Below are positions 17,668 through 22,757 of a DNA stretch of 64,000 nt, piece by piece. How positions within the stretch are numbered: the stretch's first letter is position 1; each line of letters opens with the position of its first letter. A model generated the notes under the pieces. It worked only from the letters and a program-made list of their open reading frames with translations. It made no database searches and was not told the origin of the DNA. The translations under genes were made by a program, and so were the position numbers. This DNA comes from Micromonosporaceae bacterium KJ-029 (GTDB lineage: Bacteria > Actinomycetota > Actinomycetes > Mycobacteriales > Micromonosporaceae), in contig BIFP01000007.1 in the NCBI GenBank assembly GCA_005402585.1, forward strand, positions 210,920 to 274,919, given 5' to 3'.

Positions 17668-18477
17668 CTACCACGGGTCGTCGCGTCCCAGCTCCCAGCA
17701 GGCCACGGCGGTGGCGGCGGCGACGTTGAGCGAGTCGACCCCCCGCCGCATCGGAATCACCACCCGGACATCGCTGGCCTCCATGGCCGCCCGGGTCAAT
17801 CCGGCGCCCTCGGCCCCGAGCAGCAGCGCGGCGCGGGCGCGCTGGGCGGGGTCGAGCCGCTGGATGGGGATCGCGTCCGGCGCCGGGGTCATCGCCAGCA
17901 CGGTGAAGCCGGCGGCCCGCACCTCCGCCAGCGCCGCCGGCCAGGGCTCCAGTTTGGCGTACGGCACGGCGAAGACCTCGCCCATGCTGACCCGTACGCT
18001 GCGCCGGTAGAGCGGGTCGGCGCAGGACGGGTTGAGCAGCACCGCGTCCACTCCGAGCGCCGCGACCGCCCGGAAGATCGCGCCCAGGTTCGTGTGGTTG
18101 TTGACGTCTTCGAGGATCACCGCCCGGCGGGCGCCGGCCAGCACCTCGGCGGCGGCCGGCAGCGGCTTGCGCCGGAACGACGCGAGGACTCCCCGGTGCA
18201 CGTGGAACCCGGTGGCCTCGCGCAGCACGTCGGGGGTGGCGGCGTACACCGGGGCGTCGCCGTTGTCCAGGTCGGCGAGCTGGTCGACCCGCTTGGCGTC
18301 GACCAGGTACGACCTGGCCGGGTAGCCGGCCCGCAGCGCCCGGCGCAGCACCAGCTCACCCTCGGCGATGAACAGGCCGTGCGGCGGCTCCCAGCGGGTC
18401 CGCAACTCGACGTCGGTCAGCGCGCGGTAGTCGGCGATCCGCTCGTCGCCAGGTTCGGTGATCAGCTGCACAGGCAC
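17668..18477 (-). CDS. TrmH/SpoU-family RNA 2'-O-methyltransferase
   Basis: SAM-dependent SPOUT-fold RNA methyltransferase of 269 residues. The N-terminal part is a substrate-binding domain; the three trefoil-knot motifs are NNHTNLGAIFR (near 124), LLLGAEGAGL and IPMRRGVDSLNVAAATAV. Length and domain order fit rRNA or tRNA ribose methylases. The exact nucleotide is not predictable; thiopeptide-type resistance methylases share the fold. GTG 18477 sits six bases after TACACT (18489-18484), so it is probably leaderless. A GGGGCCCC repeat lies immediately upstream. Confidence 0.85.
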   Translation of the reverse strand: MPVQLITEPGDERIADYRALTDVELRTRWEPPHGLFIAEGELVLRRALRAGYPARSYLVDAKRVDQLADLDNGDAPVYAATPDVLREATGFHVHRGVLASFRRKPLPAAAEVLAGARRAVILEDVNNHTNLGAIFRAVAALGVDAVLLNPSCADPLYRRSVRVSMGEVFAVPYAKLEPWPAALAEVRAAGFTVLAMTPAPDAIPIQRLDPAQRARAALLLGAEGAGLTRAAMEASDVRVVIPMRRGVDSLNVAAATAVACWELGRDDPW

Positions 18478-18603: not shown

Positions 18604-19908
18604 TCAGGCGAGGGTGCAGGTGGCTCCGTTGAGGGCGAACGACGACGGCCTGGCGGCGTTGCCGGTGTGGTTGGCCTGGAACCCGATTCCGACGGAGGCA
18701 CCCGGGGCGATGGTGCCGTTGTAGGCAACGTTCCTCGCCGTGACCTGCCCTGAGGTCGGCGAGTAGCTGGCGTTCCAGCCGCTGGTGATGTTCTGCCCGC
18801 CGGGCAGGGTGAAGACCAGCGACCAGCCGTTGATCGTGCTGCTGCCCGTGTTGGTGATGGTGATGTCCTCGGTCAGGCCGTTGTTCCACGCGTTGACCGT
18901 CACCGCGACCCGACAGGCGCCGGTGCCGCCCGGTGGCGGGGTCGTCGGGTTCGGCGGCGGGGTGGTGCTGCCGAACTGGGTGAAGAAGTCCCAGGTCTCG
19001 GCCGGAAGGTAGGTGGTGCGCCCCTTGACGTCCGGGGGCGCGTCGCGGTTGGCGCCGTCGGCCGGGCTGGCGTCGTGCCCGCCGTCGAAGGCGATCCACC
19101 GGACCGGGTAGCCGGCGGCGCAGCCGGAGTAGTTGGTGGTGATGTGGGTACGGCTGTTCACCGCCGGCTCGGGCGCGTTCTGCGGGGTGCAGCCGTTGTT
19201 CGCCACGAACCGGTCGCGCAGCGACCGCCCGCCGGAGATGCCGAGGACGTTGTCGCTGACCCCGTGTGCCCCGAGGTACGCGACCCGACCTGTGCCGCCG
19301 CTGCACCCGCTGATCTGCCCGCCGGCGTAGACCGCGACGGCGCGGAACACGTGCGGCCGGGCGCAGGCCAGCGCGTAGCTCATCCCGCCGCCCCAGCTGA
19401 AGCCGACGGCGAACCGTAGTGTCGTCTCCACACAGAGGTTCGCCTCGATCTGCCGGAGCATGTCATCGACGAACGTCACGTCCTCGCCGCCGGAGTTGGC
19501 CCAGCCGTTGTTCAACCCCTGGGGCGCCACAAAGATCGTGCTGTTGTTCGCCAGCTGCCGCAGCCCATAGTACGACCACACGTCCCGCAGCACCGTCTGC
19601 CCGGTGTCCACGTCCACGGCGGCACCACCCCGCCAGTGGAACCCGAACACCAGTCGGTACGGATGGTTGTTGTTGTAGTTGGCCGGCACCCGCAGGATGT
19701 AACTGCGGCTCTTGCCGTTGCTCTGGATCGTGTGCGTACCGCTGCTGAGCCCCGGCGCCCGACCACAACCCGCCGTCGCCGCCAGGGTGCCGGCGTCCGG
19801 GGACGACGCCGTCGCGCTGGGGCTGCTGCCCAGTGCCACGCCCCCCACACTCAGGACGAGCAGCGCCGTGACTGCGGCGGGCGCGAAGAACGATCTGTAT
19901 CTCGACAT
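18604..19908 (-). CDS. secreted feruloyl/polyester esterase with C-terminal CBM2
   Basis: A 434-residue secreted enzyme. The signal peptide (AAVTALLVLSVGGVALG) is followed by an alpha/beta-hydrolase domain of the PHB depolymerase / CE1 type, with Ser near 169 in GFSWGGG and a GGHDASP His block. A PPPNPTTPPP linker and a family 2 carbohydrate-binding module (from about 325, CRVAVTVNAWNNG) follow. It likely cleaves feruloyl or acetyl esters on plant cell-wall polysaccharide while bound to cellulose or xylan. ATG 19908 is preferred to ATG 19920 because GGAG lies six bases upstream. Confidence 0.85.
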   Translation of the reverse strand: MSRYRSFFAPAAVTALLVLSVGGVALGSSPSATASSPDAGTLAATAGCGRAPGLSSGTHTIQSNGKSRSYILRVPANYNNNHPYRLVFGFHWRGGAAVDVDTGQTVLRDVWSYYGLRQLANNSTIFVAPQGLNNGWANSGGEDVTFVDDMLRQIEANLCVETTLRFAVGFSWGGGMSYALACARPHVFRAVAVYAGGQISGCSGGTGRVAYLGAHGVSDNVLGISGGRSLRDRFVANNGCTPQNAPEPAVNSRTHITTNYSGCAAGYPVRWIAFDGGHDASPADGANRDAPPDVKGRTTYLPAETWDFFTQFGSTTPPPNPTTPPPGGTGACRVAVTVNAWNNGLTEDITITNTGSSTINGWSLVFTLPGGQNITSGWNASYSPTSGQVTARNVAYNGTIAPGASVGIGFQANHTGNAARPSSFALNGATCTLA

Positions 19909-20187
19909 CAGGTACTCCATTTCCGCGTCACAAGGACGCGCAGGAGGTGCGGCTGGCACCTTCGGAGAAGGTTGGAGGGGTCACCGACGCGAAGGTGGCG
20001 TGCCACGCCCCCGGCGGGAACCCGTGCTGCCCGTTGGCCGACGTCGCGGCCTCGGCCACTCACCGGATCCCGGAACCGGCGAAGGCGGTCGAGCGTGCCC
20101 TGACTCCCGCCTCGAAAGTATCGTGTGAGCGATAACATATCAAGAAGAGTGGATGTATCGCGTACTCGCCGGACCGGCGCATCATGG

Positions 20188-20727
20188 TCACCGGGGTGGG
20201 ATGATCCAAAGCGGCGGTACGTGGTTGGTGAGCCAGACGCCGTTGGCGGCCCGGTAGAAGACGGATCCATCGCGGTGCATGCCGGCGGCATCGACGGTCA
20301 GGACGACCGGTTCGCCGCGTCGGGCGCCGACCGCCGTGGCGGTCTCCCGATCGACGGAGAGGTGGACGTGGGTGCGGCGTCGCGGGTGGAGCCCTTCGGC
20401 GCGGATGCCGGGCAGAAACCGGGCGACAGTGCCGTGGTAGAGCACGGGCGGCGGCGCGACCGGTTCGAGTCGCAGGTCGACACTGATCGAATGACCCTGG
20501 GCGGCCCGGATCCGGCCGCCCAGGACCTCGAAGCGTTGCTTGTCGGTACCGGCGACCAGCCGATCGAGCAGGTCCGGGGTGACGGCCCGGCCGTGCCGGG
20601 CCAGCGCGGTGAGCAGGATGTCCACGTCCACCCAGCCGCCGTCGTCGAGGGCGATCCCGACGGCGTCCGGACGGTGCCGCAGCACGTACGCGAGGAGTTT
20701 GCTGGCCGCCGTGAGCTGGTCGGTCAC
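20188..20727 (-). CDS. kptA: RNA 2'-phosphotransferase (Tpt1/KptA family)
   Basis: A 179-residue NAD-dependent enzyme of the Tpt1/KptA family, which removes a 2'-phosphate from RNA and yields ADP-ribose 1'',2''-cyclic phosphate. Conserved parts are visible: SKLLAYVLRHRPD near the N-terminus, GGWVDVD, AAQGHSISVDL, LYHGT and THVHLS with the catalytic His/Arg set. Bacteria lack the tRNA splicing route that needs this in yeast, so its bacterial role is unsettled. GTG 20727 overlaps the LysR stop as GTGA, tying its translation to that regulator. Confidence 0.9.
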   Translation of the reverse strand: MTDQLTAASKLLAYVLRHRPDAVGIALDDGGWVDVDILLTALARHGRAVTPDLLDRLVAGTDKQRFEVLGGRIRAAQGHSISVDLRLEPVAPPPVLYHGTVARFLPGIRAEGLHPRRRTHVHLSVDRETATAVGARRGEPVVLTVDAAGMHRDGSVFYRAANGVWLTNHVPPLWIIPPR

Positions 20728-21587
20728 CGTTGGTGCCGGATCTGGTCGAGGAGATCCCGCACCACGGCCTGTCGCTGCGGGCGCCAGACCGCCCAGTACC
20801 GGATCTTCGGCAGCCCGTGGATCGGAACCGCCCGCAGGCCGGCGGGCAGCCGGACACAGCCGTTGACGATCGTGGCGCCGACGCCGAGTTCGGCCAGATG
20901 CACCAGCAGGTCCCAGCCGTCCACCTCGGCGGCGACCTGCCAGCTCACCCCCGCGTCGAGCAGGGCACGGTCCAACGCCCGCCGATGCGCCCGCCCGGCC
21001 GGCGGCACGACGAGATCCAGGCCGTCGAGGTCGCGAAGCCGGACCTGCCGGCGGGCGGCGAGCGGATGCCCGTCGTCGATCACGAGCACCTGCCGGTACG
21101 CGGCGATCTCGGTCGCTTCGAACTGCCGCGCCGGTGGATCGTGCGCGATGACGGCCAGGTCGGCCTGGCCGGCGGAGAGGGCGGCGAGCGCGCCGTCCCG
21201 GTTGGCGGTGATGACGTGTACGCGGCGCCCCTGCCGGCCGATCCGCCGGATCGGCTCGGCGATCACCCACCGCAGCGAGCCCCGCCCGGCCGCGATGGTC
21301 AGGGTACGCGCGGACTCGTGGTGGAGTTCCCGAAGCAACTCGTCAGCCCGCCGCCGCGAGTCCAGCGCGAACGCGGCGAGGCGCTCACCGGCCACGGTCA
21401 GCGTCAGCCGGCGGCCGTCCCGTTCGTAGAGTTCGACGCCAAGCGCCGCCGCCAGCTTCTTGATCTTCACGTGTAACGAGGGCTGGCTGATGTGCAGCGC
21501 CGCCGCGGCGGTGGTGAAGTTGCGGTGCTCGGCGAAGACCGCGAACGATCGCAGTGCGTCAGCTTCGAGCAGATCCCGCCCGGTCAT
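20724..21587 (-). CDS. LysR-family transcriptional regulator
   Basis: A 287-residue LysR regulator: N-terminal winged helix-turn-helix (residues about 10-65: FTTAAAALHISQPSLHVKIK) and a periplasmic-binding-like effector domain. It precedes kptA with a GTGA overlap and faces a divergent HAD-like gene. A perfect 15-base palindrome, with the T-N11-A form of LysR sites, covers its start codon (21586-21600), and a further half-site lies about 20 bases on. This suggests autoregulation and control of the divergent gene. Effector unknown. Confidence 0.87.
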   Translation of the reverse strand: MTGRDLLEADALRSFAVFAEHRNFTTAAAALHISQPSLHVKIKKLAAALGVELYERDGRRLTLTVAGERLAAFALDSRRRADELLRELHHESARTLTIAAGRGSLRWVIAEPIRRIGRQGRRVHVITANRDGALAALSAGQADLAVIAHDPPARQFEATEIAAYRQVLVIDDGHPLAARRQVRLRDLDGLDLVVPPAGRAHRRALDRALLDAGVSWQVAAEVDGWDLLVHLAELGVGATIVNGCVRLPAGLRAVPIHGLPKIRYWAVWRPQRQAVVRDLLDQIRHQR

Positions 21588-21600
21588 AGTTCAGAACTAT
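21586..21600. promoter_or_regulatory. LysR operator overlapping the lysR start codon
   Basis: ATAGTTCAGAACTAT is a perfect palindrome with T-N11-A spacing. On the reverse strand its last bases include the AT of the lysR ATG. A related half TAGTTCTG lies at about 21619-21626. Binding here would block lysR expression and could activate or repress the divergent gene at 21658. Confidence 0.6.
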
Positions 21601-21657
21601 AGAGCGATGGCCAAACAGTAGTTCTGTGCCGATGCCTCGGCGCCGCATCCTGGCCGC

Positions 21658-22221
21658 ATGATCGACAACAGCACGCAACGGGAACCACGGCTCGGCATCG
21701 ACATCGGCCGGGTCATCATCGACGGCGCCGCACACCCGGCCGGCGGTGACACCGCGTTCTTCAGCGGCAACGAGGCAACCATGCTGGCGACTCCGGAGAT
21801 GCCCGATGCCGTCGAGGTCATCGCCCGGCTCGTCCCCCTCTTCGACGGGCGGGTGTGGCTGGTCTCGAAGTGCGGCCCACGGACCCAGGCCCGCACCCTG
21901 CGATGGCTGGACGGCCACGACTTCTACCGGCGCAGCGGGATAACCCCTGACCAGGTCCGGTTCTGCCGCGCCCGGGCGGACAAACGGACGCACTGCCTCG
22001 AACTCGCCCTCACCCACTTCGTCGACGACCACCCCGAGGTGCACGCCGCGATTCGCGGCGCCGTCACCCACCAGTACTTCTTCGGACCCCAACGCCGGCC
22101 GGTATCCCGCTACGGACACCCGGCGCCCACCTGGATCGACGTCGAACGACTCGTCACCCGATCACTCCGTCCAGGGTGGAAGGCCGAGCAGCCGACAGTT
22201 CCGACGCCGGATCGCCGCTGA
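21658..22221 (+). CDS. HAD-superfamily-like protein, atypical catalytic motif
   Basis: A 187-residue protein with HAD-like order: LGIDIGRVIIDG (Asp15), hydrophobic strand ending in Ser (RVWLVSKCG), a Lys (ADKRTHC) and acidic motif HFVDDHPEV. Standard HAD phosphatases have DxD; here the second Asp is Gly17, so general acid catalysis may be altered or lost. Divergent from lysR-kptA and apparently under the same operator. It could act on a product of KptA, but that is speculation. The start ATG 21658 lacks a good ribosome site. Confidence 0.55.
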   Translation: MIDNSTQREPRLGIDIGRVIIDGAAHPAGGDTAFFSGNEATMLATPEMPDAVEVIARLVPLFDGRVWLVSKCGPRTQARTLRWLDGHDFYRRSGITPDQVRFCRARADKRTHCLELALTHFVDDHPEVHAAIRGAVTHQYFFGPQRRPVSRYGHPAPTWIDVERLVTRSLRPGWKAEQPTVPTPDRR

Positions 22222-22307: not shown

Positions 22308-22757
22308 ATGAGAGCCGGGCCGCCGAGCCGCATCGCCATCGATCACGACGACTACTACGCCGAGCACGTGGGGCGCACGGCCGACGGCCGGCAGTTCTTC
22401 CTCACCACCCCCTTCGAGCCGGGCCACCACGGCGAGGACGACGGCCAGGAGTTCGTCGCCCTGTATCTCTTCGACCCCGACGGCAAATTTCTGGAGGCGA
22501 GGATCGACGCCTTCGGCCCCAGGGCCCGGATGGACCGCGAGACGCGGCGGGCGGCATACCTCGGGCGGCTGGCCGAACTTGGCAAGGTCACGTTCACCCG
22601 TATCGAGATCGAGCCCTTCGCGCTCGATCGGTTCGGTACGACCTTCGGGCTGGTCCCCAGGGCGCCGGAAGGCGACGACGACACCTGGTGGGTCACCGTC
22701 GAACCCGGCGACTACATGGCCTTTTCCGAACCGTGGGACGGCGTGTACGACACCTGA
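22308..22757 (+). CDS. HycA-like family protein of unknown function
   Basis: A 149-residue acidic protein (RIAIDHDDYYAEHVG ... FGLVPRAPE ... EPWDGVYDT). It resembles small actinobacterial proteins often labelled formate hydrogenlyase regulatory protein HycA, a label that is probably misleading because no hydrogenlyase is present. The C-terminal W-DG-YDT signature is typical of that group. A GGTGGG sequence precedes ATG 22308. Its stop lies six bases from the stop of the convergent alpha/beta hydrolase. Confidence 0.55.
   Translation: MRAGPPSRIAIDHDDYYAEHVGRTADGRQFFLTTPFEPGHHGEDDGQEFVALYLFDPDGKFLEARIDAFGPRARMDRETRRAAYLGRLAELGKVTFTRIEIEPFALDRFGTTFGLVPRAPEGDDDTWWVTVEPGDYMAFSEPWDGVYDT

What the first reader, a model, noticed from the sequence alone, without database searches (positions are those of the whole stretch)
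20188..22221. LysR-KptA pair with a divergent atypical HAD protein under one palindrome
Seen: kptA starts inside the lysR stop (GTGA), and a perfect 15-base T-N11-A palindrome covers the lysR start codon, facing a HAD-like gene whose second catalytic Asp is Gly17. Known: Tpt1/KptA makes ADP-ribose 1'',2''-cyclic phosphate from 2'-phosphorylated RNA with NAD, and its bacterial role is unsettled. Inferred: a regulated module that handles 2'-phosphates or ADP-ribosyl products, with the HAD protein acting on or sensing a product.
Basis: partly seen in the sequence, partly recalled or inferred. Interest (0 to 1): 0.72.

Follow-up and report, generated by a model that had tools for sequence, protein, structure and literature searches.

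The report
Conserved LysR-switched KptA-phosphatase module
Many actinobacteria keep a LysR-type regulator gene next to a gene of the KptA family (enzymes that strip 2'-phosphates from RNA) and a predicted phosphatase gene, with a conserved DNA site that likely controls them; together they would form a small switchable module for clearing phosphates from RNA or nucleotides, which gives a genetic handle on the unsettled role of KptA in bacteria.

Summary
In detail: kptA starts inside the lysR stop, a perfect 15-bp palindrome overlaps the lysR start codon, and the divergent gene encodes a HAD-fold protein with Gly17 two residues after the nucleophile. It is not peculiar to one genome. Of 80 named HAD loci, 37 have a divergent LysR and 30 of those also KptA, in two layouts. 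The four-base lysR-kptA overlap recurs in 20 of 22 loci of that order. The LysR-HAD gap holds CTA(T/G), 17-18 bases, TAGTTC in 37 of 38 (with TAG-N7 in front exactly in 27); the site occurs once in the window's genome. KptAs beside the pair are not one clade. Among 29 HAD-carrying genomes searched, LysR and KptA are present or absent together in all 29. The HAD keeps its other catalytic motifs; Gly17 is invariant in 55 relatives. Against: many HADs, as in Nocardia, stand without LysR or KptA. In some relatives a paralogous LysR with the same site faces a SpoT/MESH1-like HD hydrolase. Best reading (chemistry inferred): an inducible module removing 2'/3'-phosphates from RNA or nucleotides. Binding, inducer and substrate are untested. 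Six literature searches showed no earlier description.

The parts
20188..20727 (-). kptA, RNA 2'-phosphotransferase family (Tpt1/KptA), GTG start overlapping the lysR stop by 4 bases
   Evidence: PF01885 E 2.9e-43; closest solved relatives are Tpt1 structures 7kw8, 6e3a; Arg17, His18, Arg65, Arg118 align with Arg18, His19, Arg68, Arg121 of 6e3a, named in PMC6333775 as the phosphate-binding residues
20724..21587 (-). lysR-type regulator
   Evidence: PF00126 E 1.3e-17 and PF03466 E 3e-30
21586..21600 (.). predicted proximal operator half, perfect palindrome ATAGTTCAGAACTAT (recurrent form TAG-N7-CTAT)
21617..21626 (+). predicted distal operator half AGTAGTTCTG (core TAGTTC at 21619-21624, 18 bases after CTAT)
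   Evidence: TAGTTC in 38 of 38 LysR-HAD gaps; the bipartite site occurs once in the window's genome
21658..22221 (+). HAD-fold predicted phosphatase, nucleophile Asp15, Gly17 at +2, Ser70, Lys109, Asp123-Asp124
   Evidence: 1293 relatives at E<=1e-3; invariant motif residues in 55 rows; AlphaFold model and fold search

Best explanation
The LysR, KptA and HAD genes form a conserved gene cluster with a shared predicted operator and likely work as an inducible module that removes 2'- or 3'-phosphates from RNA or nucleotides. Shown: gene order, the conserved site in the LysR-HAD gap, the stop-start overlap, KptAs of different lineages beside the pair, intact motif residues, HAD fold (predicted model). 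Inferred: the LysR protein binds TAG-N7-CTAT (recognition half) and TAGTTC (activation half), represses its own lysR-kptA operon and, with a phosphorylated nucleotide as co-inducer, turns on the divergent HAD gene. [quoted passage not shown] The HAD enzyme, whose best structural match is a deoxyribonucleotidase-like protein, would hydrolyse phosphate monoesters of the same pool (2'/3'-phosphorylated ends or nucleotides, or ADP-ribose 1''-phosphate).
For: Linkage: of the best 80 of 172 confirmed HAD loci, 37 have a divergent LysR; 30 of these 37 and 0 of the other 43 have KptA in the stretch held. Two layouts: KptA behind LysR, or KptA convergent with HAD; in 8 of 8 of the latter the HAD and KptA ORFs overlap by 32-56 bases. 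Four-base lysR-kptA overlap in 20 of 22 loci, the window not counted. CTA(T/G)-N17/18-TAGTTC in 37 of 38 gaps (spacing 18 in 30 and 17 in 7; a wider-spaced form of the pattern gives 0.07 on average in base shuffles). One site in the own genome. KptA tree: layouts A and B held as one clade rejected, AU p 9e-12; layout B alone p 0.0135; Kribbella KptA on a far branch. LysR (E<=1e-30) and KptA present together in 21 and absent together in 8 of 29 HAD genomes. 29 of 30 Micromonosporaceae genomes with the close HAD (my cut, 140 bits or more) have KptA against 146 of 210 others (Fisher p 8e-4, kinship not corrected). Motif residues intact in both enzymes. The same site with a paralogous LysR faces an HD_4 (SpoT/MESH1-like) hydrolase, another nucleotide phosphohydrolase family.
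Against: HAD stands without LysR or KptA in the stretch held at 31 Nocardia loci among the 80, and 8 of 9 HAD genomes in a class sample of 394 lack KptA, so the HAD has KptA-independent work. Most KptA genomes have no HAD (76 of 394 with KptA, 9 with HAD, 1 with both). In Actinoplanes-like genomes the LysR-HAD pair and KptA lie apart wherever both coordinates were printed. The tree cannot tell repeated gain of linkage from ancient linkage with many losses. Binding, regulation, substrate and inducer are all untested; Gly at the +2 position could mean altered or lost phosphatase activity.
Confidence: 0.5

Rival explanations
1. The HAD enzyme finishes the KptA reaction: it hydrolyses ADP-ribose 1''-phosphate (after opening of Appr>p) and LysR senses Appr>p or ADP-ribose phosphate, so the whole unit is a product-recycling loop.
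For: Linkage, conserved site and joint presence of LysR and KptA; the survey PMC9503650 proposes that HAD and other phosphoesterases near NAD-dependent RNA-repair sirtuins resolve the cyclic phosphate or process ADPr>P (section 29 read).
Against: HAD without KptA in Nocardia loci and other genomes; macrodomains, the usual ADP-ribose derivative handlers (recalled), are present in 9 of 10 genomes checked.
Confidence: 0.22
2. LysR and HAD are the real unit, with its own unknown metabolite; KptA is a passenger that shares the neighbourhood for expression reasons.
For: The site lies before HAD in both layouts; KptA has neither half of it in the about 150 bases upstream in layout B, 0 of 8; LysR-HAD pairs without linked KptA exist in 7 of 37 loci.
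Against: KptAs beside the pair come from different lineages, the four-base overlap is kept even in Kribbella with a distant KptA, and KptA is absent in 8 of 8 HAD genomes without LysR.
Confidence: 0.18
3. The HAD protein is no enzyme but a ligand-binding partner or sensor, having lost the +2 acid/base.
For: Gly17 invariant in 55 of 55 rows.
Against: Nucleophile Asp15, Ser70, Lys109 and Asp123-Asp124 are equally invariant, which a mere binder would not need. Active HADs with Gly at +2 exist (for example YihX; recalled, from no call).
Confidence: 0.1

Closest known systems
Tpt1/KptA RNA 2'-phosphotransferases (PF01885)
   Same: The kptA product is a full-length member with aligned catalytic residues.
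   Different: Here it overlaps a LysR gene and is paired with a HAD gene; none of the papers listed or read describes that.
Phage sirtuin-HAD ('Swiss-army-knife') RNA-end repair neighbourhoods (PMC9503650, section 3.7.3)
   Same: An NAD-dependent 2'-phosphate remover (proposed there for a sirtuin) beside a HAD phosphatase.
   Different: In cellular genomes of actinobacteria, KptA instead of sirtuin, with a LysR gene; none of 55 members of this HAD family matches a HAD Pfam model at E<=1.
5'(3')-deoxyribonucleotidases and the related 3bwv
   Different: 18% identity or less, Gly instead of the second Asp, no sequence-level match.
ArkI/KptA reversible tRNA 2'-phosphorylation (PMC9095486, passages seen)
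   Same: KptA as eraser of 2'-phosphate on RNA.
   Different: Writer there is an archaeal-type kinase; I did not search for one here.

Membership tests
Tpt1/KptA | PTS_2-RNA domain over the whole protein | tested here: met
   PF01885 E 2.9e-43, residues 6-168 of 179; the curated NCBIfam equivalog cut-off is just missed (NF002014, 235.4 bits against 239)
Tpt1/KptA | Catalytic Arg-His-Arg-Arg tetrad | tested here: met
   Arg17, His18, Arg65, Arg118 align with 6e3a Arg18, His19, Arg68, Arg121; Arg17 and His18 kept in 31 of 31 module KptAs; the other two were checked in the window only
Tpt1/KptA | NAD-dependent removal of RNA 2'-phosphate | not testable with these tools
   needs protein
LysR-type regulators | N-terminal winged HTH plus substrate-binding domain | tested here: met
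   PF00126, PF03466
LysR-type regulators | Divergent target with a T-N11-A site in the gap | tested here: met
   TAG-N7-CTA (a T-N11-A form) exact in 29 of 38 gaps, with TAGTTC 17-18 bases after it in 27 of 38; binding not tested
HAD superfamily | HAD Rossmann fold | tested here: met
HAD superfamily | Motif I DxD with second Asp as acid/base | tested here: not met
   DxG in 55 of 55 rows; this second Asp is not universal in active HADs (recalled)
HAD superfamily | Motifs II (Ser/Thr), III (Lys), IV (Asp-Asp) | tested here: met
   Ser70, Lys109, Asp123, Asp124 invariant in 55 rows; assignment to the motifs is by position and recall
Swiss-army-knife RNA-repair HADs | match to a Pfam HAD_SAK model (model names recalled) | tested here: inconclusive
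   no HAD model among Pfam matches of 55 members at E<=1; sequence search only
Known anti-phage defence systems | match to a PADLOC model | tested here: not met
   0 of 4 window proteins at E<=0.01

The most novel reading that the evidence does not exclude
A LysR family that senses 2'/3'-phosphoadenosine-type nucleotides (2'-phosphate RNA ends, CoA- or NADP-like molecules) and drives interchangeable clearing enzymes: KptA plus a Gly-type HAD phosphatase in many genera, a SpoT/MESH1-like HD hydrolase in paralogous units, so that bacterial KptA is an inducible metabolite or RNA-damage enzyme and not a tRNA-splicing relic.
Probability: 0.2. Interest if true: 0.85.

Novelty: new variant of a known kind. 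Interest (0 to 1): 0.68.

Why it matters
What KptA does in bacteria is an open question: its endogenous substrate is not known and loss of kptA does not affect growth of E. coli (PMC6333775, passages seen). Here the gene is tied to one regulator gene, one recurrent DNA site and one partner enzyme across several actinobacterial families. Finding the inducer of that regulator, or the substrate of the HAD partner, would point directly at the physiological substrate of KptA. The paralogous LysR-HD units give an independent second way in.

Tried and rejected
Shared locus between KptA-only and remote-HAD Micromonospora genomes (would have shown replacement in place): the flanks examined differ, so dropped. 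In a first sample of 37 genomes of the window's genus remote HAD and KptA looked mutually exclusive; in 240 Micromonosporaceae it is a depletion only (20 of 48 against 126 of 162 genomes without HAD, kinship not corrected), with exceptions inside the genus (G578, G602, G621, G664).

Nocardia neighbours (nrdEF, MgtE, a luciferase-like oxidoreductase; named by reading the sequences, no family search) look like inherited neighbourhood, not module parts. Weak GAP1-C similarity of 5 of 55 HAD members was below Pfam's cut-off in the 3 proteins where I saw the score and covers a fraction of that profile. PADLOC gave nothing. Profile search of PDB sequences with the HAD alignment gave no HAD hit, only three matches at E 0.14 and worse. 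No Swiss-army-knife HAD was seen among the sequence matches; absence there is not exclusion.

Site count alone is not enriched: CTATAG-N15/16-TAGTTC has 34 matches in 240 genomes, while the reversed control pattern has about 64 (my count from the table). What is specific is place: 26 of the 34 lie just before a HAD gene (coordinates), 7 beside a LysR paralog facing an HD gene or its remnant, and one (G629) beside neither. Four of the 30 close-HAD genomes (G484, G604, G633, G650) have no match. Upstream of the 43 HAD genes without a LysR hit TAGTTC occurs in 4 (L107, L120, L128, L142).

The KptA tree needs several changes of layout, but gains and losses cannot be told apart: linkage could be old and often lost. 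At least two arrangements and the far Kribbella KptA make one unbroken inheritance unlikely.

Rows dropped: KptA tree 68 of 84 extracted (9 duplicates of the same genomes, 6 further copies of module KptAs, 1 partial); HAD tree 80 of 81 (L151 unreadable); LysR tree 36 of 38 (length filter 250-350) plus 5 HD-linked and 2 moved ones. The class and family samples are even draws, not all genomes; at most 9 candidates per genome were scored. In one search I gave 29 genomes: the 22 close-HAD Micromonosporaceae outside the window's genus of the 30, and 7 of the 8 KptA-less class genomes (G425 left out). Only the 80 best of 172 confirmed loci were kept by the tool. Literature: six answered searches bore on the module, one on LysR with HD and HAD in Actinoplanes gave none, one on MESH1. 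PMC11833690 was seen as abstract and passages, PMC6333775, PMC6582358 and PMC9095486 as passages, PMC9503650 as passages and section 29, the MESH1 papers as listing with the starts of abstracts.

The odds did not need changing.

Full report
Observation. The window holds kptA (20188-20727, -), lysR (20724-21587, -) and a divergent 187-aa ORF (21658-22221, +). The GTG of kptA lies in the lysR stop (GTGA), and ATAGTTCAGAACTAT at 21586-21600 overlaps the lysR ATG; 0.08 such sites are expected in the window at up to 3 mismatches. KptA matches PF01885 at 2.9e-43 and LysR its two Pfam domains; the third protein matches nothing in Pfam or NCBIfam at E<=1.

Conservation of the module. Seven of seven genomes of the window's genus with a close HAD, out of 37 searched, carry LysR and KptA in the same order. 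In named genomes, 80 HAD loci were kept of 172 confirmed. LysR is found beside HAD in 37 of 80; KptA in 30 of these 37 and in none of the other 43, some of which lie on short contigs. The 30 include Micromonospora/Verrucosispora, Kineosporia, Rugosimonospora, Pseudonocardia, Phytohabitans, Kribbella, Kibdelosporangium, Actinomadura, Actinophytocola and an Acidimicrobiales MAG. Layout A is KptA-LysR divergent from HAD; layout B has KptA on the far side, convergent with HAD. The lysR-kptA overlap is four bases in 20 of 22 layout-A and Kribbella loci, the window not counted (L093 came out at -8, L101 was unreadable), and HAD and KptA overlap tail to tail by 32-56 bases in 8 of 8 layout-B loci.

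The site in the gap. In the window and the 37 LysR-HAD loci, CTA(T/G) followed after 17 or 18 bases by TAGTTC is present in 37 of 38; with TAG-N7 in front exactly in 27, in a relaxed form in 36. Spacing is 18 in 30 and 17 in 7; the wider-spaced pattern CTA(T/G)-N10-26-TAGTTC occurs 0.07 times on average in base shuffles of the set; TAGTTC alone is in 38 of 38 (shuffle 0.5). The perfect palindrome is in the window only. The window's own genome has the bipartite site once, here, so the regulator looks local. Layout-B KptA genes lack both halves in the about 150 bases upstream (0 of 8).

History. In a KptA tree of 68 rows layout-A KptAs lie in one group of 25 with 5 KptA-only rows inside it, layout-B KptAs fall among KptA-only relatives, and Kribbella KptAs sit on a very long separate branch. 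One clade for A plus B is rejected (p 9e-12); one clade for B has p 0.0135 (the groups were named by layout before the tree was built). LysR of layout A is one clade. So the KptAs beside the LysR-HAD pair are not one inherited line in one arrangement. Repeated gain fits best; old linkage with many losses and rearrangement is not excluded. Either way the tie has been kept or renewed over long distances, a sign of a functional link.

Co-occurrence. In 240 Micromonosporaceae genomes, 29 of 30 with the close HAD (140 bits or more, my cut) have KptA against 146 of 210 others (Fisher p 8e-4, kinship not corrected). In 29 HAD genomes searched for LysR at E<=1e-30, the 21 with LysR all have KptA and the 8 without LysR all lack it; in G633 and G650 LysR lies on another contig than HAD yet remains. 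Against this, in the class sample 8 of 9 HAD genomes lack KptA and the 31 Nocardia HADs among the 80 loci stand without LysR, so HAD has a KptA-independent role.

A second target. The family-wide scan for CTATAG-N15/16-TAGTTC gave 34 places in 29 of 240 genomes: 26 just before HAD, 7 at a paralogous LysR facing a protein of about 250 aa or its remnant, 1 without either. Five of six of those proteins match HD_4 (E 2e-6 to 2e-9), resemble the start of SpoT/RelA proteins (five tested) and, for the one searched, MESH1 and SpoT/RelA structures; the sixth ORF is incomplete. Their LysRs (5 in the tree) form one clade nested among the HAD-linked LysRs, and their sites carry TAG-N7-CTATAG in 7 of 7. 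By count alone the pattern is not enriched over its reversed control (34 against about 64), only by place. MESH1 is described as an NADPH phosphatase and a CoA-3'-phosphatase (listing and starts of abstracts only: PMC8298397, PMC13221220), and a Tpt1 crystal held CoA with its pAp part in the RNA site (PMC6333775, passages). This suggests, no more, that the shared signal is a nucleotide with a 2'- or 3'-phosphate.

Mechanism. Shown: order, overlap, conserved site, motif residues, recurrent association; fold by prediction. Inferred: LysR binds the site, represses itself and activates HAD with a phosphorylated nucleotide; KptA removes 2'-phosphates with NAD; HAD hydrolyses phosphate monoesters of the same pool. 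The genome also encodes 2H phosphoesterases (4 matches in G000), which could make 2'-phosphate ends, and macrodomains (2 matches, one with a stop inside).

Novelty. All families are known; the LysR-KptA-HAD unit was not described in the papers found, though only open-access text was searched and one likely source (10.1093/nar/gkw722) was not held.

Noticed in passing
L213:4823-5584, L217:4618-5358, L211:381-1127, L212:3869-4633, L214:4365-5135: Five genomes of another genus of the family (G562, G589, G631, G637 and, with an incomplete ORF, G642) hold paralogous LysR genes with the same site facing an HD_4 (SpoT/MESH1-like) hydrolase instead of the HAD gene.
   Followed up: partly
window 17668-18477 (-): SpoU-family RNA 2'-O-methyltransferase downstream of kptA, kept at 90-96% identity near the module in 8 of 9 named Micromonospora/Verrucosispora loci and seen in none of the other 71 loci held; perhaps only inherited order.
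   Followed up: partly
L009-L018 and rows near 45% identity: A remote HAD subfamily in Micromonosporaceae is depleted in KptA-carrying genomes (20 of 48 against 126 of 162 of genomes without HAD, kinship not corrected).
   Followed up: partly
window 22308-22757 (+): 149-aa protein without Pfam or NCBIfam match behind the HAD gene, also near the module in L079 and L085 at 81-84% identity.
   Followed up: no
P0004, P0007, P0071: Some HAD members show weak similarity to GAP1-C (GTPase-associated protein 1) in a stretch from motif II to IV, below Pfam's cut-off.
   Followed up: partly
window 18604-19959 (-): Polyhydroxyalkanoate-depolymerase-like esterase with a CBM2 cellulose-binding domain.
   Followed up: no
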